A DNA stretch of 64,000 bases, taken from NCBI RefSeq assembly GCF_900110465.1, contig NZ_FODV01000019.1:1-64000 (forward strand). The letters run 5' to 3'. A program made the translations under genes and the position numbers. How positions within the stretch are numbered: position 1 is the stretch's first letter; each line of letters begins with the position of its first letter. This document shows positions 882 to 23,573 of the stretch, piece by piece. The stretch is from Halogranum amylolyticum (GTDB lineage: Archaea; Halobacteriota; Halobacteria; Halobacteriales; Haloferacaceae). Under the pieces are notes generated by a model. The model saw nothing but the letters and a program-made list of their open reading frames with translations. It was not told where the DNA came from and did no database searches.

Positions 882-1697
882 CTACGATTCAGCGACGTCT
901 ACGACTTCGTAACTGACATTCTGTTCGCGAAGGTTCTCTGCGTGCGAGGGGAGAACGTCCGTCGTGGCGAGAAGCAGGACATCGAGGCCCTTCGTGGCTG
1001 CTTCTTGGACGGCGGAGACAGTGCCGAACCGAATGTCTGGATCGAGATCCACGGCATCGGAAGCAGCTAACGCCTCTGTCCCGGCCGCTGCCACCAGATC
1101 GTGAGTGTTGGTGAGTTCGACGAGTCTATCCGGATCGACTGCCGAACTTCCGCCGTTTTGGACCTGTGGAACCGAGACGATTGTCACCATTCCCATGTCG
1201 TACTCCACGACACCATCAAAGCTGGTGACGCCGACATCTTGACCGACACACGCATCCGTGACTGCAACTGCGGTTGCGTTCCCCGTCGCACCTGACATCG
1301 CACGCAGGACACCGTCTCGCATCGTAAGCGAAACCGGCTCACCTTCACTGATGTCCGTCGTTGCAATGGCAGTCTCGATGTCGACCTGTCCGATAACGTT
1401 CTGGGAAACGTGTCGGACGAACTCGCGTAGCTCGTCGGTTTGCGAGATGAGCCAGTCGACACCTTCTTTGGTGACTTCGTACCGGCCTCGGCCGTGTTTG
1501 GTAACGTAGCCCTGTTCGACCAAATCTCGAAGATAGTCGCTGACGGCCTGTGCGGTGACCCCAATGGCGTCGGCGATCTCTTGCTGACTCACCGCGGGCT
1601 GTCGCTCCGCAATCTGTACCAAGATCTGATACCGGGTTGCGTTCCGTTTGCTCTGCAGAACGCTGGTATCGTCGCCCGATTCTACGTTCTTGGGCAT
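882..1697 (-). CDS. Winged-helix transcriptional regulator beside the cobalamin genes
   Basis: A 271-residue protein. Residues about 18-80 form a MarR-like winged helix (recognition helix around IGVTAQAVSDYLRDL, wing around VTKHGRGRYEVT). About 95-271 is an alpha/beta sensor-like domain with no family I can name, carrying repeated short strand-loop units. It is transcribed divergently from cbiT with 146 bases between the starts, which contain the motifs described at 1781-1804. This arrangement makes it the best candidate for the regulator of the cob cluster; what it senses (cobalt, a corrinoid or something else) cannot be read from the sequence. The ATG at 1697 is chosen because it precedes the HTH directly. 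Confidence 0.8.
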   Translation of the reverse strand: MPKNVESGDDTSVLQSKRNATRYQILVQIAERQPAVSQQEIADAIGVTAQAVSDYLRDLVEQGYVTKHGRGRYEVTKEGVDWLISQTDELREFVRHVSQNVIGQVDIETAIATTDISEGEPVSLTMRDGVLRAMSGATGNATAVAVTDACVGQDVGVTSFDGVVEYDMGMVTIVSVPQVQNGGSSAVDPDRLVELTNTHDLVAAAGTEALAASDAVDLDPDIRFGTVSAVQEAATKGLDVLLLATTDVLPSHAENLREQNVSYEVVDVAES

Positions 1698-1780: not shown

Positions 1781-1816
1781 GAAACTAAGGTTTCTCTAAT
1801 ACAACCAAAATTGTTT
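1781..1816 (+). promoter_or_regulatory. cbiT promoter region with candidate operators
   Basis: The 16-mer 1781-1796 (GAAACTAAGGTTTCTC) matches 14 of 16 bases with 12504-12519 upstream of cbtB. CTCTAATACAA at 1794-1804 is the exact reverse complement of TTGTATTAGAG at 14662-14672 between chlID and cobN. A TATA-like TTTTAC (1811-1816) is 28-33 bases before the cbiT ATG, so the candidate operators lie just upstream of the BRE/TATA region, where an activator would bind. Confidence 0.5.
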
Positions 1817-1843
1817 TACGGCCCAGTAGAGTTGTATACGGTG

Positions 1844-2416
1844 ATGTCGCGAGTATCGCTCCCACACGACGCGAAGGCCGGTCCGACGAAGCCAGAGGTC
1901 AGGGCCGTCCTTCTCAGCAAACTCGATCTCGAACCGACCGATCACTTCGCAGAAGTCGGCTCGTGTACCGGGGCCGTTACTATCCAGGCGGCGCGCCGGG
2001 CCGGTCGGGTCACTGCACTCGAACGGAAGTCAGCACGACTATCAGTCACAGAGAAGAACCTCGCTGCCAACGACGTTTCCGCAACCGTCGAACTCCGTGA
2101 GGCGGAAGCACCCGATGGGCTCCCGACCGACGTGGATGCCTTGTTCCTCGGTGGCAGTCGAAACTACGAGGCGGTGCTCGATCACGTGGTCGACACTGGT
2201 ATCGACCGGGTCGTGATGAACGTCTCCCGCCTCGAAGTCGCTGGCGCCGCAATCGAGGCGTTCCGCGAACGGAACCTCCTCGACGAAGTGGTCCAGTTCC
2301 AGGTGAGTCACGGCTACGACCTCGCCGGTGCGACGAGTTTTAACTCGGACAACCCGGTGTACATGCTGACCGGCGGTACGACCGACGTCGCAGCTGACGG
2401 AGGAGATAGCCGATGA
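1844..2416 (+). CDS. cbiT: Cobalt-precorrin-6B C15-methyltransferase (decarboxylating), CbiT
   Basis: A 190-residue Rossmann methyltransferase that methylates C15 and decarboxylates the acetate side chain at C12 of cobalt-precorrin-6B. SAM motif I is visible as FAEVGSCTGAVTIQAA (about 35-50), followed by the acidic strand end ALERK. The length fits stand-alone CbiT. The frame opens further upstream, but the ATG at 1844 gives the usual N-terminus (SLPHDAKAGPTKPEVR) and sits correctly behind the TATA-like box. It overlaps cbiL by 4 bases (ATGA), implying coupled translation. First gene of the ring-methylation operon. Confidence 0.93.
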   Translation: MSRVSLPHDAKAGPTKPEVRAVLLSKLDLEPTDHFAEVGSCTGAVTIQAARRAGRVTALERKSARLSVTEKNLAANDVSATVELREAEAPDGLPTDVDALFLGGSRNYEAVLDHVVDTGIDRVVMNVSRLEVAGAAIEAFRERNLLDEVVQFQVSHGYDLAGATSFNSDNPVYMLTGGTTDVAADGGDSR

Positions 2417-3282
2417 CTCTCTACGGCGTCGGCCTCGGACCCGGTGATGCAGACCTCGTGACTGTCCGCGGTAAACACGTTCTCGAAACAGCCGACGTGG
2501 TGTACACGCCCGGCCGCCTTTCGCGGTCAGTTGCGACCGAACACGTACCGGAATCGCGCATCGGCGATCTCTCGTTCCCGATGACACGCGACGAAGACGA
2601 ACTTCGTCGTGCCTGGAAGGAGGCAGCCGAAGAAATCGCACCCAGGGCCCAGACGGGGACAGCTGCCTTCGTCACACTCGGTGACCCGAACGTCTACTCG
2701 ACGTTCGGCCATCTGCGACGGACACTCTCGGCGTTCCACCCCGACGTCGACGTCGAGACAGTTCCCGGAGTGAGTGCCGTCACGGCGTTCACCACTGCAC
2801 TCGGTATCGAAGTGGCCGCAGGGTCGAGTCTCACGCTTCACGAGGCTGCTCGCGGTGCTGCCCCTACGGATGCCGACCGGATGGTTCTGTTCAAGGTCAC
2901 CGACGTTCCGACAACTCACGACCAACTCGTCGCCGCCGACTACGACGTCGTCTACGGTCGACGACTGTACATGGAGCAGGGCGAGACCGTCGTCACAGAC
3001 GACCCCGAGGAGTTGACCGACCGAGACTACTACACTCTCGCTTACGCCGAGAAACGCGATCTCGACGTGACCCCGGCGACGGCAACGTTCGACAGCATGG
3101 AGTCAGAGGGCACATCGGATCGTACCGGGCCCGGGGCAGGAACTGACGACTCGAGCGAGTCTGCCGATGTGACTGACGGGACTCACGCTCAGCCTCATCA
3201 GCCAAGCGAGACCGAACGACAGGAACGAGCCGAGAGCGCTTCCTGTGGCGACGAGATTCCAGGGGAGGCAACTCTCAGATGA
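2413..3282 (+). CDS. cbiL: Cobalt-precorrin-2 C20-methyltransferase, CbiL
   Basis: A 289-residue tetrapyrrole (class III) methyltransferase that transfers a SAM methyl to C20 of cobalt-precorrin-2. The family glycine loop GVGLGPGD is at residues 5-12, the GDPNVYSTFG loop near 90-100, and the VPGVSAVTAF segment near 118. The catalytic domain ends near 225. The last ~65 residues are a disordered, acidic, Ser/Thr-rich tail with a single Cys near the end (ESASCGDE). The tail is unusual for bacterial CbiL. It overlaps cbiF by 4 bases. Confidence 0.93.
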   Translation: MTLYGVGLGPGDADLVTVRGKHVLETADVVYTPGRLSRSVATEHVPESRIGDLSFPMTRDEDELRRAWKEAAEEIAPRAQTGTAAFVTLGDPNVYSTFGHLRRTLSAFHPDVDVETVPGVSAVTAFTTALGIEVAAGSSLTLHEAARGAAPTDADRMVLFKVTDVPTTHDQLVAADYDVVYGRRLYMEQGETVVTDDPEELTDRDYYTLAYAEKRDLDVTPATATFDSMESEGTSDRTGPGAGTDDSSESADVTDGTHAQPHQPSETERQERAESASCGDEIPGEATLR

Positions 3283-4145
3283 CGGATCCACAAGAGGCCA
3301 TCGACGCGGAGGCTGCGGTCCGGACGACGAAGCGCGACTCGCGAATCGAGGAGCGGACGGCCGGCGAGAGACAGGACGGCATCCCGTTCATTGGCGCCGG
3401 CCCGGGTGACCCGGGACTGCTCACGGTTACGGGGAAGCAACTGGTCGAAGCAGCAGATCTCGTGGTACACGCCGGGTCGCTCGTCAACAGTGAACTGCTC
3501 GAAGAGTACTGTGCGGACGCCGAGCAGGTGTCGAGCATCGGTAAGGACTTGGAAGAGCTGATTCCACTGATGCGGGACGCCTACGAGAACGGCCGCACGG
3601 TCGTCCGCCTTCACAGCGGTGACCCAGCGATTTACGGCGCCGCCTTAGAGCAGATGGATGCACTCGAACACGAAGGTGTCCCGACGTATCTCGTACCGGG
3701 GGTCACCTCGGCGTTCGCTGCCAGTGCGACGCTCCGGACGCAGCTCACCTTGAACGGCGTCTCGAATCACGTTGCCTTCACTCGACCACAGGGGAAGACG
3801 CTCGAACCCGAAGACGACCACATCGGAGAGTTCGTCGAGATGGGAGACGTGACGACGTGTGTCTACCTCGGGACCCACGCAGTCGCCGACACGATGGACC
3901 GACTGCTGGCGGACGGACACGACCCGGACACTCCGGTGACGGTCGTTTACCACGCCTCGTGGCCGGACGAGGACATCGTCGAGGGAACCGTCGCGACCAT
4001 CGGTGAGAGACTCGAAGCCGCGGGCTATCGCGCCTCCGCACTGGTCATCATCGGTGCTGCCGCTCAGAAGACGGGGTACGAGCGTTCCTACCTCTACGGT
4101 GATTGGGCGAACCGTGGCACGAACGAGAGCGAAGCGGACGACTGA
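3279..4145 (+). CDS. cbiF: Cobalt-precorrin-4 C11-methyltransferase, CbiF/CobM
   Basis: A 288-residue class III methyltransferase acting at C11 of cobalt-precorrin-4. A charged N-terminal extension of about 36 residues precedes the core, which begins IPFIGAGPGDPGLLT. The HSGDPAIYGA loop (about 111-120), the VPGVTSAFAA segment and the NGVSNHVAFTRPQGKT segment diagnostic of CbiF/CobM are all present. It begins inside the end of cbiL (ATGA overlap) and is followed 3 bases later by cbiG. Confidence 0.93.
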   Translation: MTDPQEAIDAEAAVRTTKRDSRIEERTAGERQDGIPFIGAGPGDPGLLTVTGKQLVEAADLVVHAGSLVNSELLEEYCADAEQVSSIGKDLEELIPLMRDAYENGRTVVRLHSGDPAIYGAALEQMDALEHEGVPTYLVPGVTSAFAASATLRTQLTLNGVSNHVAFTRPQGKTLEPEDDHIGEFVEMGDVTTCVYLGTHAVADTMDRLLADGHDPDTPVTVVYHASWPDEDIVEGTVATIGERLEAAGYRASALVIIGAAAQKTGYERSYLYGDWANRGTNESEADD

Positions 4146-4148
4146 TTC

Positions 4149-5129
4149 ATGAGTACTGACACGAACGAGACTGACTCGGACGAATCGACTGGCCACTGTT
4201 CGACCCCCGACTCCGACGGGGAGGTGGCCGAAGAGATCGCGATCATCAGCTTCGAGCGAAAGCTCGAGACGGCGCGGGAGATCAGAGCAGGAATCGGCGA
4301 CGAGTACGACTGCATCGACATCATCGAGTACCACGGAGAGGTGTTCGAAGATCACTGGGGAGAGTACGACTGTTTCGTCGGGCTGATGGCCTCGGGCATC
4401 GCGATGCGAAAGACTGCGCCGCTGCTCGACGACAAGTGGGACGACCCGGCTATCGTGGTCGTCGACGAAGCGCTGACGTGGGCCATCCCCATCACGGGCG
4501 GTCACCACGGTGCCAACCAGGTCGCCTACGACCTCTCGCAGTTGGGTGCTGTCCCTGCGATGACCACCGCGAGTGAGGCGGCAGGCAAACAGGGTGTCGA
4601 GAGCAAAGCGAAGGCTCTGGATACGCACGTCGTCAACGGTGACTCCACAGTTGCGACGAATCTCGCTGTTTTGAACGAGGAGCTCGGTCCAGTCGCCCGT
4701 CTCGACGGCCCTCGTGCGGTCCTCGTCGGCGACGACGTCACCGTTCTCGAGCGCAACGCCGACGACGGCGTGGTCCTCGGGACGGGTACCGTCTCGGGGG
4801 TGAAGAAAGCACGAGTACTCGACGCCTGGGAGGCCGCTCTGGGTGAGCTGGGACTTGGGTTCTCGGACGTGGACTTCGTCGCCACCGGCACCCGGAAGGA
4901 GGGTGAAGAAGGACTATACGAGGCCGCACAGGAGATCGGTGCTGGAGTCGTCCTCTTCGAGAAGGAGACGCTGGAGGAGTTTGAGGGGCCGTCACCGTCG
5001 CGGTCGAAGGAGCTGATCGGCTGGCCGGGAATCGCCGAAGCGTCGGCCATCGCCGGCGGTCGCGAACACGAACTCGCTCGGGAGAAAGAGCGGTTCGACG
5101 ACGCCGTGACCGTGGCGGTGGGGCGATAA
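4149..5129 (+). CDS. cbiG: Cobalt-precorrin-5A hydrolase, CbiG
   Basis: A 326-residue protein that opens the delta-lactone of cobalt-precorrin-5A and releases the C2 fragment as acetaldehyde. After an acidic N-terminal extension (1-28, with one Cys in TGHCST) come the N-terminal CbiG domain (VGLMASGIAMRKTAPLL; DEALTWAIPITGGHHGAN) and a C-terminal domain (GTGTVSGVKKARVLDAWEAA; VATGTRKEGEEGLYEAA). Both domains are complete. It sits between cbiF and the two cbiH copies in the usual archaeal order. Confidence 0.92.
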   Translation: MSTDTNETDSDESTGHCSTPDSDGEVAEEIAIISFERKLETAREIRAGIGDEYDCIDIIEYHGEVFEDHWGEYDCFVGLMASGIAMRKTAPLLDDKWDDPAIVVVDEALTWAIPITGGHHGANQVAYDLSQLGAVPAMTTASEAAGKQGVESKAKALDTHVVNGDSTVATNLAVLNEELGPVARLDGPRAVLVGDDVTVLERNADDGVVLGTGTVSGVKKARVLDAWEAALGELGLGFSDVDFVATGTRKEGEEGLYEAAQEIGAGVVLFEKETLEEFEGPSPSRSKELIGWPGIAEASAIAGGREHELAREKERFDDAVTVAVGR

Positions 5130-5130
5130 C

Positions 5131-6036
5131 ATGGGTACGATCGATCCTCCCGTCGACGACCGCGAGATGGGAACGCTCTACGTCGTCGGTATCGGCCCTG
5201 GGCTGCCGCACGCGATGACACAGCGAGCCAAGGATGTCGTCGCCACAGCCGACTGCGTCGTCGCGTCGAACCTCTACCAGGAGTTCCTCCGACGCGACGG
5301 AACGCTCCCGCCCGAGAGCGCAAAAGTAGAAACCGCACCCGACGGAGGGACGACGGCGGGAGACGAACAGGGTACCGTCCTCGAGCGACCCGGCGGCACC
5401 CGGCAGACCCTCGTTCGGTCGACGATGGGGCAACAGGTCGAACTGGCCCGCGAGGCGTTCCAGCGCGTCCGGGCGGGCGAAGACGTCGCCCACGTCTCGG
5501 GGGGCGATCCGAACGTCTACGGTAAGAGCGATCTGCTGTTCACGATGGCCGAGGCCGACGAGGCGTACGATATCCCTATCGAGGTCGTCCCTGGCGTGAC
5601 GGCGGCACTCGGTGGGGCGGCGAATCTCGGGGCACCGCTGTCGAACGACTTCTGCACCGTCTCCCTCTCCGACAAGTGGCGCGGATGGGACGAGATCGAA
5701 GAGAAACTGCGCGCCGCAGCCATCAGCGGGTTCGTCATCGTTCTCTACAACTGCTGGCGGGACTACCAGCGGGCCATCGACGTGGTTCGTGAGGAGCGAG
5801 CAGACGACGTCCCGGTCGGCATCTTCAACGACGCCGGTCGCAGCGATGCCGGCCGAAATCTGGAGGACGAGACACACACCATCACGACCCTCGGTGAGGC
5901 GAACGACCACGACGACGAAGTCGGCGGGATGGGAACCTCCATCCTCATCGGCAACCACGAGACGACGGTCTGGGAGAACGACTACGCCGAACATCTCGTC
6001 ACCCCGCGCGGCGGGCGTGACGTCGACGATTTCTAA
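5131..6036 (+). CDS. cbiH1: Precorrin-3B C17-methyltransferase family protein, first copy
   Basis: A 301-residue class III methyltransferase: GIGPGLPHAMTQRA near residue 20, SGGDPNVYG near 128, VVPGVTAALGGAANLGAPLSND and the YNCWRDYQRAI segment. Homologues perform C17 methylation and ring contraction. An insertion of about 35 residues (about 55-90, Gly/Thr-rich) separates it from the second copy. The YN[C/P]W position reads YNCW here but YNPW in the next gene, and only this copy has the long insertion, so the two paralogues may have different roles. It starts 1 base after cbiG. Confidence 0.9.
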   Translation: MGTIDPPVDDREMGTLYVVGIGPGLPHAMTQRAKDVVATADCVVASNLYQEFLRRDGTLPPESAKVETAPDGGTTAGDEQGTVLERPGGTRQTLVRSTMGQQVELAREAFQRVRAGEDVAHVSGGDPNVYGKSDLLFTMAEADEAYDIPIEVVPGVTAALGGAANLGAPLSNDFCTVSLSDKWRGWDEIEEKLRAAAISGFVIVLYNCWRDYQRAIDVVREERADDVPVGIFNDAGRSDAGRNLEDETHTITTLGEANDHDDEVGGMGTSILIGNHETTVWENDYAEHLVTPRGGRDVDDF

Positions 6037-6038
6037 CA

Positions 6039-7010
6039 ATGAGCACTGACGACACTACCGAGACGAGTACAGACACCGAAACCAGCTGTGGCGCAAACGG
6101 CGCCGAGAACGCGACTGACACCGAACCGGATTCGAACTGCGGGGCTTCCACTTCGTCGTCCCGGTCTGGATGCGGCAGTTCGAAGAAATCGACGACTGAT
6201 GAGAAGGTCGAGTCGACTGTCGACGATTTCGACGCCGACCCCGGACGACTCGTCGCAGTGGGGTTGGGTCCCGGTCAACCGGACGGAATGACACAACGGG
6301 CTCGCGGGGCGCTGCTGGAGGCAGAGCACATCGTCGGCTACACTACGTACGTCGAACTCCTGCCGGAGGAAGTCACGAAGTCGGCCGACGAACTGTACGA
6401 CACGCCGATGTGTGGCGAAGTCTCCCGCACAGAAGAGGCGATCGACCGCGCGCTCGCAGGAAACGACGTCGCGATCATCGGAAGTGGTGACCCGAACGTC
6501 TACGCACTGGCCGGACTCGCGCTGGAGATACTCGAGTCGAAAGGTGCGACCGCGAGCATGGTCGACTTCGAGGTGGTCCCGGGGGTGCCGGCGGCCCAGT
6601 CCTGTGGCGCACGACTGGGTGCACCGTTGGTGAACGATACCGTCAGCATTTCGCTGTCGGATCATCTGACGCCGATGCCGACCATCGAGTCGCGACTCCA
6701 CGCAGCGGCGAAGGAGGGCTTTACCATCGCCATCTACAACCCCTGGAGCCGGAAGCGTCGGGAGAACTTCCAGAAGTGCTGTGAGATTCTCATGGAACAC
6801 CGCGAGTCGGAGACGCCAGTAGGAATCGTCCACGGCGCGGGTCGCGACGATGAACAGGTCGACATCGTCGAACTCCAAGAGTTAGCTGACCTCGGCGAGA
6901 CTGAGCTCGTCGATATGACGACGACCATCCTCGTCGGAAACGAGGAGACGTACGTCTGGGACGACCGGATGGTGACACCGCGAGGATACGAGTCCAAGTA
7001 TGACTACTGA
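6039..7010 (+). CDS. cbiH2: Precorrin-3B C17-methyltransferase family protein, second copy
   Basis: A 323-residue class III methyltransferase paralogous to the gene just upstream. A disordered N-terminal extension of about 65 Ser/Thr/Asp residues carries three CG dipeptides (Cys 17, 34 and 45), unusual in haloarchaeal proteins where Cys is rare. The core has GLGPGQPDGMTQRA, GSGDPNVYA, VVPGVPAAQSCGARLGAPLV and YNPWSRKRR, all typical of CbiH/CobJ. It overlaps the ferredoxin-like gene by 11 bases. It is the more canonical CbiH of the pair. Confidence 0.9.
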   Translation: MSTDDTTETSTDTETSCGANGAENATDTEPDSNCGASTSSSRSGCGSSKKSTTDEKVESTVDDFDADPGRLVAVGLGPGQPDGMTQRARGALLEAEHIVGYTTYVELLPEEVTKSADELYDTPMCGEVSRTEEAIDRALAGNDVAIIGSGDPNVYALAGLALEILESKGATASMVDFEVVPGVPAAQSCGARLGAPLVNDTVSISLSDHLTPMPTIESRLHAAAKEGFTIAIYNPWSRKRRENFQKCCEILMEHRESETPVGIVHGAGRDDEQVDIVELQELADLGETELVDMTTTILVGNEETYVWDDRMVTPRGYESKYDY

Positions 7011-7251
7011 CTATCAGATCCGACTCGACCGTGACGCCTGCGAGGGCGTCTTCGCCTGTCTCGTACGAGACGACCGCTTCGCCGAGGCGTCGGACGGTCT
7101 GGCGACGATAGGTGGCAGACAAGGAGGCAGCGACGAGGACGACGAGCTAGTCGTCACCTTTACCGACGACCGAGTGGCGGAGGCCAGACAGGCCGCTCGT
7201 GCCTGTCCCGTCGACGCAATCGACGTGGTGACGGAGGCAGCCGATGAGTGA
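7000..7251 (+). CDS. 3Fe-4S-type ferredoxin of the cobalamin operon
   Basis: An 83-residue protein with Cys14-x5-Cys20 and a late CPVDAI motif (Cys about 70), the spacing seen in [3Fe-4S] ferredoxins rather than the four-Cys 4Fe-4S type. The middle is a Gly/Asp-rich acidic loop. It overlaps both neighbours (11 bases with cbiH2, 8 bases with the next gene), so it is probably made with them. A redox role in ring contraction, or in a reductase step otherwise missing from the cluster, is plausible but inferred. Confidence 0.8.
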   Translation: MTTDYQIRLDRDACEGVFACLVRDDRFAEASDGLATIGGRQGGSDEDDELVVTFTDDRVAEARQAARACPVDAIDVVTEAADE

Positions 7252-7960
7252 CACGAACCCTGAGTCCACGACGCGAGAACCAGTCGACGACCTGCTTGCA
7301 GCGACGGCGCGAACGGCGTACTTCTGGGGGCGCGTGGTCGGCGACGGTGAGCTGACTCGGGACTGCGTGACCGTGCGGACGGAAGACGAGACGTCTGCCG
7401 ACGCACTCGCAGCGATTGCCGGTGCCAGCCGGACGTCCCACGACCACCAGATGACTGCACGTGAGTCAGCGCACGACGCCTCGATCGTCCGGTTCGAAGA
7501 CGAATACGAGCTACAGGTGTTCGGCGCGTCGGCTGACCGCGCCAGCGCCGCGCTTGGGCTCCCGATCGACGGGCAACGAGGAGGGTACCGGTTCGACACG
7601 TTCTCGGCCTACCGTCCACAGCTCGTTCGGGGGTTGCTCGAAGCCTGCGGCACTGTCTGTTTCCGAGAGTCATCGGGGTCGGTCGGGGTGTCGTTCGTCC
7701 ACGACGACGAGGCCCTGCTTCGGACCGTTCAGTCACTCCTCGACGCCGCCGAACCCGACGCTCCCACCGATGCACTCTCAGAAACGTCTTCGGGAGGGCA
7801 CTGGTTCGGACTGGCCGAGGATGCGGACACCGCGTCGTTTGCACGGTGGGTCTACGCTGGGAGTGACAACTCGAAACTGTACTCGGCGGAGCGACGACAG
7901 AAACTCCGACGGAGCGTCGAACGAGCAACCGGCAGCGAGGTGGGAGAACTCTCCCGATGA
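7244..7960 (+). CDS. Cobalamin-operon protein resembling a LAGLIDADG fold
   Basis: A 238-residue protein conserved in position within haloarchaeal cob operons, with function unknown to me. Two helices resemble LAGLIDADG motifs: AYFWGRVVGDGEL (25-37, acidic Asp34) and LVRGLLEACGTV (127-138). In the second, the position normally holding the catalytic Asp is Cys135. A late ARWVYAGSDNSKLYSAERRQ segment resembles the end of a LAGLIDADG domain. With only one acid left, nuclease activity is unlikely; a WhiA-like DNA-binding or a structural role is possible. It overlaps the ferredoxin and cbiX genes, so it is firmly inside the operon. Confidence 0.75.
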   Translation: MSDTNPESTTREPVDDLLAATARTAYFWGRVVGDGELTRDCVTVRTEDETSADALAAIAGASRTSHDHQMTARESAHDASIVRFEDEYELQVFGASADRASAALGLPIDGQRGGYRFDTFSAYRPQLVRGLLEACGTVCFRESSGSVGVSFVHDDEALLRTVQSLLDAAEPDAPTDALSETSSGGHWFGLAEDADTASFARWVYAGSDNSKLYSAERRQKLRRSVERATGSEVGELSR

Positions 7961-9183
7961 CCGCCAACGCGAAAGCCAGCCCGGCTGCACTCGACGACGA
8001 AGCCGTACTACTGGTCGGACACGGCTCCCGTCGTGAGAAGTCCAACGAACAGGTTCGCACGCTCGCAGCGGACCTCGAAGGTCGACTGGGTATCCCGGTC
8101 GACGCAGGGTTCCTCGAACTCGCCGAACCGGCGATAGCCGACGCAATCGCCGGTCTCGCGTCGACCGTGTCGCGGGTTACTGTCGTCCAACTGTCGCTGT
8201 TCGCAGCGAGCCACGTCAAAAACGACGTCCCCCTGGCGGTCCAGCGAGCCCGGAGTGACCACTCTGAACTCACGATTCACACCGGTTCACATCTCGGCGC
8301 CCATCCCGCACTCGTCGACCTGCTCGACGACCGGGCGGCAGCAGTCGAAGCGGAACTGGGCGTCGACCGCGAGGTGGACGACGTCGGGGTCGTTCTCTGT
8401 GCTCGCGGCTCCAGCGACCCGGACGCCAACAGCGACGCGCACAAACTCGCCCGATTGCTGTACGAAGGGCGCTCCTTCGACCGAGTCGACACTTCGTTCA
8501 TCGGTATCACCGAACCGCGGCTCGAGGAAACGCTGCACGCGATGGCCAAACATCGTCCGGACGCTGTCGTCGTCCTGCCGTACATGCTCGGTGACGGCGT
8601 GCTCACCGGACGAATTCGGGACGGTGCCGCCGAGTTCGACGAGGCGTACCCGTACGTCGATGCGGCGGCCGGCGACCCCCTCGGAACTGACACGCGGCTG
8701 TTAGACGTGCTCGGGGATCGCTGGCAGGAAGCGCGGACGGAGAGCGTGAACATGTCGTGTGACACCTGCAAGTACAAGGTCGAACTCGACGGCTACGAGG
8801 AAGACGTCGGCGGTGCGCGGGCGATGCTGCGAGCGCTGACACACCAGGAGTCCCACGCCGACCGCGACGACGTGGACGAGGACCCTCACATGCACGACGC
8901 GCCCGAGAAACACGTCGCCGTCTGTACGAACCAGACCTGTGCCGCCGACGGCTCACCGGCCGTGCTCGAACGGCTACGACAGGAGGCACGCGACTCCGAC
9001 GCCTGCGACGTGCGAATCACGCGTTCGTCGTGTCTCGGGCGCTGTGGTGACGGGCCGATGGTCGCCGTCTACCCCGACGGCGTTTGGTACGGTGGTGTCG
9101 ACCGGACCGACGCGGAACGAATCGTTTCGTCCCACCTCGATCGGGACCGCATCGTCTCGGATATCGTCGATCAAACACTGTAA
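7957..9183 (+). CDS. cbiX: Sirohydrochlorin cobaltochelatase CbiX fused to a 2Fe-2S ferredoxin domain
   Basis: A 408-residue fusion. Residues about 15-265 are a long two-half CbiX: the first half has the metal-site motif LLVGHGSRREKSN and SLFAASHVKNDVPLAV; the second half has LCARGSSDPDANSD. CbiX inserts Co(II) into sirohydrochlorin at the start of the anaerobic pathway. A His/Asp-rich linker (HQESHADRDD, DPHMHD) leads to a thioredoxin-like [2Fe-2S] domain (about 325-395) with C-x4-C and SSCLGRCGDG. A CDTCKY motif precedes the linker. It overlaps the LAGLIDADG-like gene by 4 bases. Confidence 0.92.
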   Translation: MTANAKASPAALDDEAVLLVGHGSRREKSNEQVRTLAADLEGRLGIPVDAGFLELAEPAIADAIAGLASTVSRVTVVQLSLFAASHVKNDVPLAVQRARSDHSELTIHTGSHLGAHPALVDLLDDRAAAVEAELGVDREVDDVGVVLCARGSSDPDANSDAHKLARLLYEGRSFDRVDTSFIGITEPRLEETLHAMAKHRPDAVVVLPYMLGDGVLTGRIRDGAAEFDEAYPYVDAAAGDPLGTDTRLLDVLGDRWQEARTESVNMSCDTCKYKVELDGYEEDVGGARAMLRALTHQESHADRDDVDEDPHMHDAPEKHVAVCTNQTCAADGSPAVLERLRQEARDSDACDVRITRSSCLGRCGDGPMVAVYPDGVWYGGVDRTDAERIVSSHLDRDRIVSDIVDQTL

Positions 9184-9191
9184 TCAGAACA

Positions 9192-9563
9192 ATGAGCTGC
9201 TACGAAATCGAAGCCCTACGACTCGGACTGATGAACGTTCTCGGAACCGAGGACCGAAGCGCGCGTGAACACGCAGAGAAGGAACTCGACGGTCACCTCG
9301 ACGGTCCCATCGAAGCCCTTGCACACGCAGAGACGTTGTCGGACGTCCGGCGGCACCTCGATGCGGCGCTCGTCGACCTCGAAGAGGAGATCGCCGCGAC
9401 CGATGCAGACGATCCGGAGTACGACTACATGCGTGGACGACTCGTCGCTGTCCGTGATGCCGAGCGTGCCGTCCATCGACTGACCGACCAGGGCGAGAGC
9501 GTGCTCGGTGGACTGGCGGAGGCACACGACGTCCTTCACGAGACGTTCCCCGTCGATGAATGA
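9192..9563 (+). CDS. DUF3209 family protein
   Basis: A 123-residue, mostly helical acidic protein beginning MSCYEIEALRLGLMNVLG, which I recognise as DUF3209, a family of unknown function found in haloarchaeal cobalamin clusters. The ATG at 9192, 8 bases after the cbiX stop, is preferred to the longer in-frame opening that overlaps cbiX, because the conserved family start is there. Its stop overlaps the next gene by 8 bases. The ferritin-like helical pattern is only an impression. Confidence 0.8.
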   Translation: MSCYEIEALRLGLMNVLGTEDRSAREHAEKELDGHLDGPIEALAHAETLSDVRRHLDAALVDLEEEIAATDADDPEYDYMRGRLVAVRDAERAVHRLTDQGESVLGGLAEAHDVLHETFPVDE

Positions 9564-10788
9564 CGCGCTGGCGCGGCGAACGGTCGAACTCGGGGAGGTG
9601 ACGCCAGCCCGATCCCGGCATGCCGGTCGACGGTCGGCCGTCACGTTCGTCGACGAGCTCGTGGTTACGGGGAGGGCCACCGGAGACGTCCTCGCTCACG
9701 ACCGCACGACGCTCGGCGAACGCTGGAGTTCCGGAACGGAGACGGAGGAGACTGCCATCGTCTCGGCCGAGCAGTTCGGCGACGGCGTCGTGGTCGGCGA
9801 GCGCGGTCCCGAAGGGTCTCTCCGGTGCTACGACGCCGAGACCGGTTCACTCCGCTGGCAGTACGCTACGGCGACGGACGTCGGCACACACCAGAAGCCG
9901 TCTCGGTTCTTCTTCCCGTTCGTTGTCGACATCGTGTCCGACGGTGACCGGTTGTACGTTGCCTCCCGCCGCTACGAGCGTGACGGTGAGCGTCGCTCGT
10001 TCACCAGTGTCGTCTACGCTTTCGACGAGGCAGGCGACGTCGTCTGGACGTACGAAACTGACGCCTCTCCGATCAGCGTCGACGCCGACGGCCATCGCCT
10101 CGGAGTCGCGTACAACCGCTGTCCCGGCACTCACCAGCGTGGTCTCGTCGTCCTCGACGCGAGAACGGGCGCAGTGCAGTACGAGTGGGACCCCGGTACC
10201 GACGGTCAGCGACGCGTTGGTGACGTCTCGCTGGTCGACGACGGAGTCGTGGTAGCCAGCCACGGTGACTACTGCGGCTACCGCCTCCGAGACGGCGGTG
10301 TCGAGCAGTGGTGTGTCGACATAGCAACGCCCACGACGGTCGACGGCGAAACGCTGTACGCCTATCCGAACCACGTGCACGCGACGACCGACGGTGTGGT
10401 CTTCCTCACGGGGAACACGTACTCGACGGACGGTCGTGAGACTGCGTCGCTGCATCCAGGCGAACACACTGCCTTCGGTTACTCTCCGGACGGTGAGCGG
10501 CTCTGGACGGCATCCGTCGGTGGTTTCACGAACGAGCTCGGCGTCGACGGAGACCGCGTGGCTGTTCCCGGAGCGCAGCACTTTCGGACTCGCGATGCGG
10601 AGGTCCACGGTCTCCGCACGTTCACGACAGACACCGGTCCCCAGGATGGGTTCGAAACCGACGGCATCGTCACGGCGGTCGCACTCGACGGCGAAACGTT
10701 CGTCGCCGTGGAGGAACCCGTCGTCTACCACGACGAAGCGACGGAGCGTGGCAGCTATCGACTGCTGCTCGGGACGGTAGGCTCGTAA
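9556..10788 (+). CDS. Cytoplasmic PQQ-like beta-propeller protein of the cobalamin operon
   Basis: A 410-residue protein built from repeated blades of the type LRCYDAETGSLRWQYA, VVYAFDEAGDVVWTYE, VLDARTGAVQYEW and TAFGYSPDGERLWTAS: a PQQ/BamB-like beta-propeller. There is no signal peptide, Tat motif or lipobox, unlike most haloarchaeal propellers in this window, so it should be cytoplasmic. It overlaps DUF3209 by 8 bases and ends the operon. A scaffold or corrinoid-handling role is inference from context. The ATG at 9556 is chosen over an earlier in-frame opening inside DUF3209. Confidence 0.8.
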   Translation: MNDALARRTVELGEVTPARSRHAGRRSAVTFVDELVVTGRATGDVLAHDRTTLGERWSSGTETEETAIVSAEQFGDGVVVGERGPEGSLRCYDAETGSLRWQYATATDVGTHQKPSRFFFPFVVDIVSDGDRLYVASRRYERDGERRSFTSVVYAFDEAGDVVWTYETDASPISVDADGHRLGVAYNRCPGTHQRGLVVLDARTGAVQYEWDPGTDGQRRVGDVSLVDDGVVVASHGDYCGYRLRDGGVEQWCVDIATPTTVDGETLYAYPNHVHATTDGVVFLTGNTYSTDGRETASLHPGEHTAFGYSPDGERLWTASVGGFTNELGVDGDRVAVPGAQHFRTRDAEVHGLRTFTTDTGPQDGFETDGIVTAVALDGETFVAVEEPVVYHDEATERGSYRLLLGTVGS

Positions 10789-11096: not shown

Positions 11097-11474
11097 TCAG
11101 GGATCGGTGGTATTCTCGCCGTCGTCGACGAGACTGTCGTTCTCCTCGAGACCCAACTGCGAGCCATCGACACCGAATTCGCCTTCGAGTAGTTCCGGAA
11201 CTTCGTCCGGGAGCACGTCCGAATACCACCGATTGCGTGGCTGAATTACGATCGCCGTTCCCTCGGCGCTACACAGTCCGAGACAGCTCGTCTCTACGAC
11301 GTGGACGCGCGACCAGAAGACGCCCCGTTCGCGCAGCCACGACTTCACCGCCTCGTAAACGTCTCGACCGTGTGCCTCCGCACAGCAGGCATACTCCGAG
11401 TCCCGGTCGTTCGTACAGACCAGTACGTGGTCGGAGAAGCCGTTCTCTTGGACGTCTTTAGTACGGTGTTTCAT
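11097..11474 (-). CDS. 2Fe-2S ferredoxin-like protein next to cobalt transporter
   Basis: A 125-residue thioredoxin-like [2Fe-2S] protein: Cys in VLVCTNDRDSEYACC, then TSCLGLCSAEGTAIVIQP near residue 70, the same C-x(n)-C ... C-x3-C arrangement as the CbiX C-terminal domain. Its ATG overlaps the cbtA stop (ATGA), so cbtB-cbtA and this gene form one minus-strand operon. It may donate electrons to keep cobalt reduced for insertion; that is inference. Confidence 0.83.
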   Translation of the reverse strand: MKHRTKDVQENGFSDHVLVCTNDRDSEYACCAEAHGRDVYEAVKSWLRERGVFWSRVHVVETSCLGLCSAEGTAIVIQPRNRWYSDVLPDEVPELLEGEFGVDGSQLGLEENDSLVDDGENTTDP

Positions 11475-12259
11475 CAGTCTGCGGTGACAGTCGGATCAGA
11501 GCGTGCTCTCGCCGCCTCGGCGGCCTGCTCGTCCATCGAGCGTCGACGGAGTTGGGCGTGGCTCCACGCGAGGCAGAGCCAGAGCAACGCCTGTCCGAAT
11601 ACGACCATCCCCACTAGTCCGGTCGCCAGTTCGGAAGGGAGTGGGCTCTCCACGGAGTTACTCGGCGAGAGAACGGCCGGGATCGCGAGCAGACCGAAGG
11701 GAAGCGTCGCGAAGACGGCGGCTGTAAGCCGTCCGCGCACGTCCCAAAGTCGACCGTATACGAATCCCGCCAGCAGGCAGACGAGCGCACCGGCGACCAT
11801 CATCCCTCCGTAGAGGACGAGACGGGTATCAGTGGGGAGCGCTTGCTCGGCCCCCGGTGGCCGTGGCGGGAGCACGAGCCACGGCGACCCGGAAACGGTG
11901 ATGAAGCCGGCAGCGGCCAAGAGATAGCTCTTCGTCTCACCGACTCCCGGAATCGCGGGTTCGAGGAAGTAGTAGGCGATTCCGAAGATCACCCCGCCCA
12001 GGAGTACGCCCCAGAGAACACCGGAGACGACGCTCACTCCTTTCGTAACTGCCGTCGAGACGGCGCTATCGTGGTGTCCACCACTCTCCTCGTGATGCGC
12101 ACTAGTCTCCTCGTGGTGTTCATCGACAGCGTGGTCACTGTGCCCGAGTTCGTCGGCAAAGACGACGAGCGGATTAGCGACGAGTGCCGTGAGCAAGCCG
12201 AAAACCACCCCGGCAATCACGCCTGCCTTCACTCCCTGTTTTAGATACGTAGTGAGCAT
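11474..12259 (-). CDS. cbtA: Cobalt transporter subunit CbtA
   Basis: A 261-residue membrane protein with an N-terminal helix (GVIAGVVFGLLTALVAN), a striking His-rich loop (about 40-66: GHSDHAVDEHHEE, AHHEESGGHH) and four or five further hydrophobic helices (LLGGVIFGIAYYF, YLLAAAGFITVSG, MMVAGALVCLLAGFVYG, GLVGMVVFGQALLWL). This is the CbtA layout; CbtA/CbtB are predicted cobalt uptake proteins linked to B12 genes. It lies 2 bases downstream of cbtB and overlaps the 2Fe-2S gene. Confidence 0.88.
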   Translation of the reverse strand: MLTTYLKQGVKAGVIAGVVFGLLTALVANPLVVFADELGHSDHAVDEHHEETSAHHEESGGHHDSAVSTAVTKGVSVVSGVLWGVLLGGVIFGIAYYFLEPAIPGVGETKSYLLAAAGFITVSGSPWLVLPPRPPGAEQALPTDTRLVLYGGMMVAGALVCLLAGFVYGRLWDVRGRLTAAVFATLPFGLLAIPAVLSPSNSVESPLPSELATGLVGMVVFGQALLWLCLAWSHAQLRRRSMDEQAAEAARARSDPTVTAD

Positions 12260-20161: not shown

Positions 20162-20187
20162 CCAACTTGGCAAACAGGATGCTACCC

Positions 20188-20973
20188 ATGACGACCGAAT
20201 CACTCCTACTCATCAGTCGTGACACGAGAAGTTCCCGCGAAGTGTTCGAGACACACGCCGACCGGCTCGAACGACGGACCGGCGTTGACACCGTTGAGTT
20301 AGCGACCTACGAGAGTGAGCCGGTGTCTGAGCTCCGTGACCAGTTCCGGGCAATGTCCGCCGAAACGGTGTATGCTCTCCCGATGTGCATGGCGCACTCG
20401 TACGACACAGTTGATGGCGTTCCCGCTGCTCTCTCGTACATCTCGGGTGAGGTACATTACTGCGAACCTCTCGGTCAGAGTCCAGCTATCACCGATGTGC
20501 TTCTAGAAAAAGCGTCTACCCACGTTCCGGCGACCGGAGAGACGTCACTCGTCCTCGTCGGCTTCGGCAGTAGCTCGAAACCGTATCACCGACAGGCTGC
20601 TAACTACCACGCGGCACGACTCCGTGAGCAATCAGACTACGGAGAAGTCCTGACGTGCTATCTCATCCAGAATCCGACCGTCGAATGCATCCGGTACAAC
20701 GTCTCGAACCCCCGTGCGGTGGCGGTTCCCTTGTTCGTGTCACGCACCGAAGCGACCGAACGACGGGTGCCGGAAGAGCTCGAACTCGACCGTGGTGGCA
20801 TCGAGTACGCAGACCCATTCGGCGACCATCCCCGGATAACAGACGCGATTCACGCGGAGGTCGAAAAGCAGCGAGCCCTCGCTTACGGCGATACGTCCGC
20901 CTCTCGCTCGTTCGAAGCACAGCTCACGCGAACGTGTCGCCCAGTCGCAACTGACGGCGAAGGAGTACTGTAA
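20188..20973 (+). CDS. Divergent CbiX-like protein
   Basis: A 261-residue protein with a two-half CbiX chelatase fold, but the metal-site GHGS motif is changed in both halves: SRDTRSS in the N-terminal half and LVGFGSSSKPYHRQ in the C-terminal half. PMCMAHSYDTVDGVPAAL keeps a possible second-site His. It may bind a tetrapyrrole without chelatase activity, or use other ligands. TTG (20167), ATG (20179) and ATG (20188) are possible starts; the last fits the TATA spacing. It has its own promoter with cob-like motifs. Confidence 0.72.
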   Translation: MTTESLLLISRDTRSSREVFETHADRLERRTGVDTVELATYESEPVSELRDQFRAMSAETVYALPMCMAHSYDTVDGVPAALSYISGEVHYCEPLGQSPAITDVLLEKASTHVPATGETSLVLVGFGSSSKPYHRQAANYHAARLREQSDYGEVLTCYLIQNPTVECIRYNVSNPRAVAVPLFVSRTEATERRVPEELELDRGGIEYADPFGDHPRITDAIHAEVEKQRALAYGDTSASRSFEAQLTRTCRPVATDGEGVL

Positions 20974-22342: not shown

Positions 22343-22386
22343 CCCCACCCTACCGCTCGCCTAACGGCTCGCGCTTGAGGGTGGGG
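22343..22386 (-). ncRNA. Predicted omega-RNA 3' hairpin at the right end of the IS1341 element
   Basis: CCCCACCCT (22343-22351) and AGGGTGGGG (22378-22386) form a perfect 9-bp stem at the right end, overlapping the tnpB stop. In studied TnpB elements a noncoding guide RNA is transcribed across this end and pairs with the nuclease. The overlap is seen; the RNA is inferred from the family. Confidence 0.4.
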
Positions 22387-23573
22387 CTTCCTGCTTCAAC
22401 GACGCGCTTTGCAGATACCGAGGTATCCACAGGGAGCGCAGTCTCCACAGGCGTTGACTCGGAGCGTCCCGCTCCTAACCGCTTTGTGATACCGCGAGAA
22501 AGAATGTTCCACGCTGCATTCGCGTCCCTATCCACCTCAAATCCACACGCCGGATAGGAGTGTTCACGGACCCACAGCGGCTTGTCCGTCGAAACGCCAC
22601 AGGACGCGCACTCTTTGGTCGTCCCTCTCGGGTTGACCGCTACGAAGTGCGTCCCTTCGCGTTCGCACTTGTGTTCGAGCATCCGCAAGAACGTCCCCCA
22701 CGCCGCACCTGCTCGGTTCCGGGAGTTCCCCGGTAGTTCGACCAGACCGGCAGCGTCCAAGTCCTCGACCGCCACGAGGTCGTACTCCCGAGCGTAGTAG
22801 TTCGAGAGCTTGTGGAGGAAGTCCCGTCGCTTGTTCTTGAGGTCGGCGTGACGTTCGGCTACGACCTTCCGCTGTTCCTCCCAATTCGCGGAACCGTGTT
22901 CCTTCCGCGAGAGGTCGCGTTGGGCGCGTTCCAACCGCTCGCGTTCGTCGGACAGGTCGAGCGATTCGACGGCGGTTCCGTCGGTGTCGTGGACGTACTT
23001 GAGTATACCAACGTCGATACCGACGCACCGCTCAGGATTCTTGGACTTCGCGGGCGGGTCGTCGGGAGTCTCGACGCCGAGGATGGCGTACCACTTGCCG
23101 GTTGGTTCCTGCTTGACCGTGACGGTCTTGATTTCGGAACCGTCGGGCAGGTCGCGGTGGAAGGTAAGCGGGATTTCTCCGAGTTTCGAGAGCCACAGTT
23201 TTGTCCGACCGCTCGTGTTCTTGAGCTTGAAGCCGGATTGACTGTAGGTGAAACTACGGTATTCGCCCGGTGCTTTCCACTTGAGCGTGCCGACGCGGTA
23301 GCCGTTCTCTTTACGCCCACGTAGCGTCAAGAGGTTGTCGTACAACCGCTGAACGACTTTCTGTAGCACCTTCGAGTGAACGCTCTTCAGGTCGTTCCAC
23401 CACTTCTTGAGACTCGGCAGGAGTTTCTGTTCGGAGTATGCCGAGGTGTCGTCGGTGCGGTTGAGTCGGTGAAGGAAGTGGTTGTAGACTTGTCTACAGG
23501 TATCGACAGTCCACGCTAGCTGTTCTTCGAGAGCGTCGGACGGTCGGAGTCGATACCTGTAGTTGTAGTTCAT
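22350..23573 (-). CDS. tnpB: TnpB, RNA-guided nuclease of the IS1341 type
   Basis: A 407-residue TnpB: N-terminal helical domain (WTVDTCRQVYNHFLHRLN), beta-barrel segment, then the split RuvC domain with CVGIDVGILKYV, VAVEDLDAAGL and EVDRDANAAWNIL carrying the Asp-Glu-Asp triad. The zinc ribbon has CASCG, but its second half reads HSYPACGF where CPxC is expected, so one zinc-ligand Cys is replaced by Tyr. TnpB homologues are omega-RNA-guided DNA nucleases. Its ATG directly abuts the stop of the small upstream gene. Confidence 0.9.
   Translation of the reverse strand: MNYNYRYRLRPSDALEEQLAWTVDTCRQVYNHFLHRLNRTDDTSAYSEQKLLPSLKKWWNDLKSVHSKVLQKVVQRLYDNLLTLRGRKENGYRVGTLKWKAPGEYRSFTYSQSGFKLKNTSGRTKLWLSKLGEIPLTFHRDLPDGSEIKTVTVKQEPTGKWYAILGVETPDDPPAKSKNPERCVGIDVGILKYVHDTDGTAVESLDLSDERERLERAQRDLSRKEHGSANWEEQRKVVAERHADLKNKRRDFLHKLSNYYAREYDLVAVEDLDAAGLVELPGNSRNRAGAAWGTFLRMLEHKCEREGTHFVAVNPRGTTKECASCGVSTDKPLWVREHSYPACGFEVDRDANAAWNILSRGITKRLGAGRSESTPVETALPVDTSVSAKRVVEAGSPTLKREPLGER

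What the first reader, a model, noticed from the sequence alone, without database searches (positions are those of the whole stretch)
7244..7960. A LAGLIDADG-like protein embedded in the cobalamin operon
Seen: two helices resembling LAGLIDADG motifs (25-37 with GDG; 127-138 with EACG, Cys135 at the acid position), translationally coupled to a ferredoxin and to cbiX. Known: LAGLIDADG folds can lose nuclease activity and become regulators (WhiA). Inference: a homing-endonuclease-derived protein recruited as a regulator or structural part of B12 synthesis.
Basis: partly seen in the sequence, partly recalled or inferred. Interest (0 to 1): 0.75.

Follow-up and report, generated by a model that had tools for sequence, protein, structure and literature searches.

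The report
Nuclease-dead homing endonuclease in B12 operon
Salt-loving archaea that build vitamin B12 from scratch nearly all carry, inside the B12 operon, a protein descended from a DNA-cutting 'homing' enzyme that has lost its cutting residues; it probably now helps handle cobalt or electrons at the cobalt-insertion step, although its exact job is still untested.

Summary
ORF 7244-7960 is a real, purifying-selected protein, overlapping its ferredoxin and cbiX neighbours. AlphaFold2 gives a duplicated LAGLIDADG fold and the 50 best PDB matches are LAGLIDADG proteins or inteins carrying them (I-DmoI, PI-PfuI, WhiA). Profile comparison links it to haloarchaeal intein endonucleases, best to the MCM-intein type. 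The nuclease site is dead: the second catalytic acid is Cys (70/73 homologues) and Asp34 is not conserved (46/73), while His77, Glu133 and Cys139 are invariant.

The family tracks de novo corrin synthesis: in 148 of 153 CbiG-positive Halobacteria genomes and 0 of 141 others. New here: five CbiG-positive genomes lack it. Four have cob clusters that also lack the ferredoxin, DUF3209, the beta-propeller and CbiX's 2Fe-2S domain; three of these hosts lack COX1. All five instead have a CbiX with a poly-histidine tail, and in one it sits exactly in the missing gene's slot. No examined cluster with the protein has that tail.

I read it as a domesticated, non-nuclease LAGLIDADG protein working with the Fe-S CbiX/ferredoxin set, most likely in cobalt handling (mechanism about 0.35). 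A WhiA-like regulator remains possible but has no direct support. A CbiD/CbiJ substitute is disfavoured.

The parts
7244..7960 (+). Nuclease-dead double-LAGLIDADG protein ('LAG' in this report), 238 aa, pI 4.7
   Evidence: AF2 pLDDT 76, pTM 0.77; Foldseek PDB hits all LAGLIDADG proteins or inteins; hhalign to haloarchaeal intein endonucleases; in 148/294 Halobacteria genomes
7304..7351 (+). First LAGLIDADG-like helix and GDG turn (about residues 21-36); Asp34 (7343-7345) is at the former acid position but is variable in homologues
7622..7663 (+). Second LAGLIDADG-like motif LVRGLLEACGTVCF (residues 127-140); Cys135 (7646-7648) replaces the catalytic acid, Cys139 (7658-7660) and Glu133 invariant
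7472..7474 (+). His77, invariant in 73/73 homologues; candidate ligand with Cys135/Cys139
7000..7251 (+). Three-cysteine ferredoxin (Fer4_15), partner candidate; only C14, C20 and the CP-motif Cys are invariant, a [3Fe-4S]-like pattern
   Evidence: Pfam E 7e-18; conservation over 73 sequences
7957..9183 (+). CbiX cobaltochelatase with MSCDTC motif and C-terminal 2Fe-2S thioredoxin-like domain
6039..7010 (+). cbiH2 (C17-methyltransferase, ring contraction)
   Evidence: TIGR01466 E 9e-94
5131..6036 (+). cbiH1, second CbiH paralogue
   Evidence: TIGR01466 E 1e-54, below its cut-off
4149..5129 (+). cbiG, marker of the cobalt-early pathway
3279..4145 (+). cbiF
   Evidence: TP_methylase; gene order as in Hfx. 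volcanii
1811..3282 (+). cbiT and cbiL, start of the operon
   Evidence: for cbiL (TP_methylase); cbiT from sequence and gene order
9192..9563 (+). DUF3209 gene; its slot is absent from the LAG-minus clusters
   Evidence: Pfam E 3e-52
9562..10788 (+). PQQ-type beta-propeller gene; absent from the LAG-minus clusters

Best explanation
A LAGLIDADG homing-endonuclease domain, most like those of haloarchaeal MCM inteins, lost its nuclease centre and was domesticated once as a dedicated part of the cobalt-early cobalamin operon of (mostly aerobic) haloarchaea. Shown here: homology and fold, loss of the catalytic acids, purifying selection, co-inheritance with de novo corrin synthesis and with a 3-Cys ferredoxin plus a 2Fe-2S-tailed CbiX, and mutual exclusion with a poly-His-tailed CbiX. 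Inferred: the old nuclease centre, with Cys135 at the acid position, invariant Cys139, His77 and Glu133 and common His153, now binds a metal (Co2+) or Fe-S ligand, and the protein hands cobalt to CbiX, or keeps cobalt/CbiX in a usable redox state together with the ferredoxin. This is the role that a poly-His tail on CbiX would fill in lineages without it.
For: Fold. Profile homology with shuffled controls; a genome search with the family profile hit a LAGLIDADG domain inside an MCM intein at E 7e-5. Dead centre and invariant Cys/His/Glu. Co-occurrence: CbiG+ genomes 148/153 have it, CbiG- genomes 0/141. Operon position between ferredoxin and cbiX in nearly all clusters examined. Replacement: all 5 LAG-minus CbiG+ genomes carry a poly-His CbiX, and in G052 it fills the exact LAG slot between ferredoxin and cbiX. 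52/52 scored LAG-plus clusters carry a 2Fe-2S-tailed CbiX with only 5-8 His. No poly-His CbiX was found among 17 off-cluster paralogues of LAG-plus genomes, and G021's own CbiX is of the 2Fe-2S type. The G052 poly-His CbiX is not a recent copy of its neighbour. The His-rich tail of Bacillus CbiX-L has been proposed to serve metal storage and delivery (PMC7689651, PMC8390425).
Against: No metal or ferredoxin binding was tested. The mutual exclusion rests on about two independent events: the four LAG-minus clusters form one clade, plus G052. Cys135 is Ala/Thr in 3/73 and His153 is Ala/Thr in 9/73, so the proposed site is not fully invariant. Everything in the LAG-plus module changes together, so the pairing with the poly-His tail could be hitchhiking. 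No coordinates of the model were available to check that the Cys/His residues meet in space.
Confidence: 0.4

Rival explanations
1. A WhiA-like DNA- or RNA-binding regulator of the cob operon, keeping the LAGLIDADG beta-saddle for nucleic-acid binding and using its Cys/His residues to sense cobalt or oxygen.
For: WhiA is a precedent and is among the structural matches (3hyj, E 4e-4). The family is dedicated to the cob operon. Dedicated cobalamin regulators of haloarchaea were not found in the papers read.
Against: No HTH domain and no Pfam or NCBIfam match. The protein is acidic (pI 4.7, 2 Lys), and the most conserved predicted saddle residues are small or Cys (T137, C139, S150), not the basic/polar residues of DNA-binding saddles, although R45 and K/R141 are common (surface assignment inferred). 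A regulator does not explain the swap for a poly-His CbiX. A winged-helix gene next to cbiT (882-1697) is a more ordinary regulator candidate.
Confidence: 0.2
2. An enzyme or enzyme subunit filling one of the two gaps of the haloarchaeal pathway: C1 methylation (CbiD) or cobalt-precorrin-6A reduction (CbiJ), for example with the ferredoxin as reductase.
For: CbiD is absent from 294/294 Halobacteria genomes and CbiJ has no hit over its cut-off. Pfeiffer and Dyall-Smith (PMC8305020) named the four unassigned genes of this cluster as candidates for the gaps.
Against: The four LAG-minus clusters also lack the ferredoxin, DUF3209 and propeller genes, and their genomes lack CbiD and CbiJ, yet they keep cbiT, cbiL, cbiF, cbiG, cbiH1, cbiH2, cbiX. 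If those organisms make the ring, none of the four genes can be the required gap filler. CbiH1 is present in all of them.
Confidence: 0.13
3. An oxygen-protection or electron-delivery scaffold: LAG positions the 3-Cys ferredoxin on CbiH2 or CbiX so that reductive, oxygen-sensitive early steps run in aerobic cells.
For: All 99 LAG-plus genomes tested have COX1; three of five LAG-minus CbiG+ genomes lack it. LAG travels with the ferredoxin and the 2Fe-2S CbiX.
Against: One phylogenetic event explains most of the COX1 signal. G271 and G052 have COX1 but no LAG. G052 keeps the ferredoxin without LAG, and two LAG-plus loci (L010, L050) have no ferredoxin in the fetched locus.
Confidence: 0.2
4. A working or recently decayed homing endonuclease that merely sits in the operon.
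For: LAGLIDADG fold and sequence ancestry.
Against: The second acid is lost in all 73 homologues, and the first in 27. One vertical copy in a fixed operon position, purifying selection, no intron or intein around it.
Confidence: 0.02

Closest known systems
LAGLIDADG homing endonucleases of haloarchaeal inteins (MCM intein type; Pfam LAGLIDADG_3) and I-DmoI
   Same: Double LAGLIDADG fold, both motif helices, RGL(L/F)(D/E)A motif
   Different: Free-standing operon gene, no catalytic acid pair, invariant Cys139/His77, not mobile
WhiA / DUF199
   Same: Domesticated LAGLIDADG protein without nuclease residues; structural match 3hyj
   Different: No HTH domain; archaeal; dedicated to a biosynthetic operon; only a weak structural match
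HVO_B0055 / 'cobalamin biosynthesis protein' of haloarchaeal annotations
   Same: By gene order the Haloferax volcanii orthologue (B0054 cbiX, B0057 cbiH2); plasmid records name homologues 'cobalamin biosynthesis protein' or 'hypothetical protein'
   Different: Function listed as unassigned; the LAGLIDADG ancestry is not reported in the papers searched
Poly-His C-terminal tail of CbiX-L (Bacillus megaterium)
   Same: Proposed metal storage/delivery at the cobalt chelation step (PMC7689651); occurs in haloarchaea exactly where LAG is missing
   Different: Unrelated in sequence; a tail of the chelatase, not a separate protein

Membership tests
LAGLIDADG fold superfamily (homologous origin) | Double alpha-beta-beta-alpha-beta-beta-alpha core with two LAGLIDADG helices | tested here: met
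   AF2 model; top 50 PDB matches are LAGLIDADG proteins or inteins carrying them; hhalign 92-94% with shuffled controls below 1%
LAGLIDADG homing endonuclease (active) | One acidic residue at the end of each LAGLIDADG helix | tested here: not met
   Position 135 is Cys (70), Ala (2), Thr (1); position 34 is Asp in only 46/73
LAGLIDADG homing endonuclease (active) | Carried by an intron, intein or other mobile location | tested here: not met
   Fixed operon position across the clusters examined
LAGLIDADG homing endonuclease (active) | Cleaves DNA | not testable with these tools
   Needs a cleavage assay
WhiA | C-terminal HTH DNA-binding domain fused to the LAGLIDADG domain | tested here: not met
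   238 aa, no HTH match in Pfam; the 12 homologues of alignment A1 also gave none
WhiA | LAGLIDADG domain without nuclease acids | tested here: met
CbiD (PF01888) or CbiJ (PF02571) | Match to the family model | tested here: not met
   No Pfam match for the protein; no genome of 294 matches either family over its cut-off
Part of the cobalt-early cobalamin machinery | Co-occurrence and gene neighbourhood with cbi genes | tested here: met
   148/153 CbiG+ against 0/141 CbiG- genomes; neighbourhoods
Metallochaperone / metal-binding partner of CbiX | Conserved metal-ligand residues | tested here: inconclusive
   His77 and Cys139 73/73, Cys135 70/73, His153 64/73; spatial proximity not checked
Metallochaperone / metal-binding partner of CbiX | Binds cobalt and interacts with CbiX | not testable with these tools
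   Needs purified proteins

The most novel reading that the evidence does not exclude
A homing-endonuclease fold was converted, through an acid-to-cysteine change at its nuclease centre, into a cobalt- (or Fe-S-) handling protein that serves the B12 cobaltochelatase and stands in for its poly-histidine tail: a selfish DNA-cutting domain turned into a metal-trafficking part of a biosynthetic pathway.
Probability: 0.3. Interest if true: 0.85.

Novelty: new variant of a known kind. Interest (0 to 1): 0.62.

Why it matters
Known domesticated LAGLIDADG proteins act on DNA or RNA (WhiA, HO, maturases; from general knowledge). A conserved, nuclease-dead member locked into a cofactor biosynthesis operon would be a different kind of recruitment. 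It also bears on an open question, the unassigned genes and two missing steps of haloarchaeal B12 synthesis: the data argue that the four unassigned cluster genes are an accessory set, not the missing CbiD/CbiJ, and they give a directly testable swap (this gene against a poly-His CbiX) in Haloferax volcanii.

Tried and rejected
Single-sequence searches of Pfam, NCBIfam and PDB sequences found nothing, and the A1 profile found no LAGLIDADG chain in PDB sequences; only structure and profile-profile comparison showed the family. Viral contigs held no relative. FDX-LAG, H2-FDX or LAG-CbiX fusions were sought and not found. One COX1 search over all handles exceeded the 80-handle limit and was run on 80, plus 19 others, of 148 LAG-plus genomes. 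Active nuclease was rejected on the lost acids. The CbiD/CbiJ substitute was downgraded because clusters without LAG also lack CbiD/CbiJ. 'Anaerobes lack it' was kept only as a correlation: the four clusters are one clade and G271 has COX1. The pathway paper PMC3773766 was not held. A first regular expression for the CbiX 2Fe-2S motif was wrong and was corrected. The second structure job was not used: the stated rule allows only the window and loci from certain tools, and those were already in the first alignment.

Full report
What was checked. The window lies in a haloarchaeal genome (G000, class Halobacteria). ORF 7244-7960 (+) encodes 238 aa and overlaps the upstream ferredoxin ORF by 8 nt and the downstream cbiX by 4 nt. 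The operon reads cbiT, cbiL, cbiF, cbiG, cbiH1, cbiH2, ferredoxin, this gene (called LAG here), cbiX, DUF3209, beta-propeller. Synonymous divergence to the five nearest homologues is about 0.8-1.05 and nonsynonymous 0.10-0.14, so the protein is maintained.

Fold and ancestry. No Pfam, NCBIfam or PDB sequence match exists for the single sequence; three of 13 homologues touch PF14528 (LAGLIDADG_3) weakly (E 0.03). Foldseek against the PDB returned only LAGLIDADG proteins and inteins carrying them in the 50 rows shown (TliVMA intein, I-DmoI, I-Tsp061I, PI-PfuI, I-SceI, WhiA), and the viral library gave mostly homing endonucleases and intein-bearing proteins. A profile of 57 homologues (A2) against an alignment of 30 haloarchaeal LAGLIDADG domains gave 94% and E 1e-7 over 192 columns; against 21 intein endonucleases of the MCM type it gave 92%; shuffled columns and unrelated operon proteins stayed below 1%. 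Four other small endonuclease groups gave 2-4% and a three-sequence group of the MCM type 77%. Independently, a genome search with A2 hit a LAGLIDADG domain at E 7e-5 in a 2061-aa frame that Pfam shows to be MCM with an intein. The nearest relatives are thus MCM-type intein endonucleases, though a tree at this distance would not be reliable.

The nuclease centre. In 73 distinct homologues position 135, the second acid, is Cys (70), Ala (2) or Thr (1); position 34, the first acid, is Asp in 46 and Ser/Asn/Gly/Ala in 27. Invariant residues include His77, Arg129, Gly130, Glu133, Cys139, Ser150, Phe188, Tyr204, Arg217 and Lys220. So the site is dead as a nuclease, but a new conserved set sits at and around the second motif. 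Metal or cluster binding is inferred, not shown.

Distribution. Over the same 294 Halobacteria genomes, CbiG (cobalt-early marker) is in 153, LAG in 148, CbiD in 0, and CbiJ in 0 over its cut-off. Every LAG genome has CbiG. In a draw from the whole phylum the only other match was the MCM intein. Pfeiffer and Dyall-Smith list the Hfx. volcanii genes HVO_B0052, B0053, B0055 and B0056 as unassigned and as candidates for the CbiD and CbiJ gaps (PMC8305020); by gene order B0055 is LAG, B0056 the ferredoxin, and B0053/B0052 DUF3209 and the propeller (inference).

The informative exceptions. Five CbiG-positive genomes have no LAG. In four (G001, G007, G130, G271; loci L083, L084, L086, L087) the cluster is cbiT-L-F-G-H1-H2-X followed by chlID-cobN, with no room for ferredoxin, LAG, DUF3209 or propeller. 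Three of these hosts have no COX1; all 99 LAG-positive genomes tested have it. A concatenated tree puts the four clusters in one clade (support 0.997), although their hosts belong to three families, so this is close to one evolutionary event. In these four, CbiX ends in an MxCxxC motif plus a poly-His tail with 12-40 His and has no 2Fe-2S domain. In all 52 scored LAG-positive clusters (one genome counted twice), CbiX ends in MxCxxC, 5-8 His and a 2Fe-2S domain.

The fifth exception, G052 (L085), is independent. The ferredoxin and the 2Fe-2S CbiX remain, and the LAG slot between them is filled by a second CbiX with a poly-His tail, which branches outside the 2Fe-2S clade and is not a fresh duplicate. 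Among 17 off-cluster CbiX paralogues of LAG-positive genomes none has such a tail, and the CbiX of G021, whose LAG lies away from its cob cluster, is of the 2Fe-2S type. LAG and the poly-His tail therefore exclude each other in every genome examined. The tail of Bacillus CbiX-L has been proposed to store or deliver metal and is not needed for chelation itself (PMC7689651, PMC8390425).

Reading. The simplest account is that LAG, sometimes with the ferredoxin and Fe-S CbiX, does what the poly-His tail does elsewhere: it handles cobalt for CbiX, perhaps in a redox-aware way suited to aerobic cells. I put this mechanism at about 0.35-0.4. That LAG is a domesticated, non-nuclease LAGLIDADG protein belonging to the cob machinery I hold at above 0.9. 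A regulator (0.2) or redox scaffold (0.2) remains open. A CbiD/CbiJ substitute (0.13) is disfavoured because LAG-minus clusters lack those too, on the assumption, untested, that those organisms make B12.

Limits. No experiment, no model coordinates, few independent losses, and presence/absence depends on genome completeness (mostly above 95%). COX1 was tested in 99 of 148 LAG-positive genomes. The CbiX tail census covers the fetched clusters, not all genomes.

Noticed in passing
window 882-1697 (-): Divergent winged-helix-type regulator gene beside cbiT; relatives occur in 10 of the fetched cob loci. A more conventional candidate for cob regulation than LAG.
   Followed up: partly
window 11097-11474 (-): Small stand-alone protein whose sequence resembles the 2Fe-2S tail domain of CbiX, next to a CbtA-like cobalt transporter gene (11474-12259).
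   Followed up: partly
window 7000-7251 (+): The ferredoxin has only three invariant cysteines in 73 homologues (the fourth position is not Cys), a [3Fe-4S]-like pattern; the open ligand position could be filled by a partner protein.
   Followed up: partly
L083, L084, L086, L087: A second type of haloarchaeal cob cluster, one clade spread over three host families, without any of the four unassigned genes of the Haloferax cluster: suggests horizontal transfer.
   Followed up: partly
L043:7826-8422 (-), genome G021: Divergent 198-aa LAG homologue outside the cob cluster, next to a rhodanese-domain gene and a cation-efflux transporter; Asp34 is Ser, Cys135 and Cys139 kept.
   Followed up: partly
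window 20167-20973 (+): Another CbiX-domain protein just downstream of cbiE, lacking the Fe-S tail; possibly a further chelatase-like protein.
   Followed up: no
window 22350-23573 (-): IS605-type TnpB/OrfB-like transposon protein close to the end of the cobalamin gene cluster (seen from the sequence only).
   Followed up: no
294 Halobacteria genomes: CbiD in none and CbiJ in none over cut-off, although 153 have CbiG: the two pathway gaps noted for Haloferax hold across the class.
   Followed up: yes
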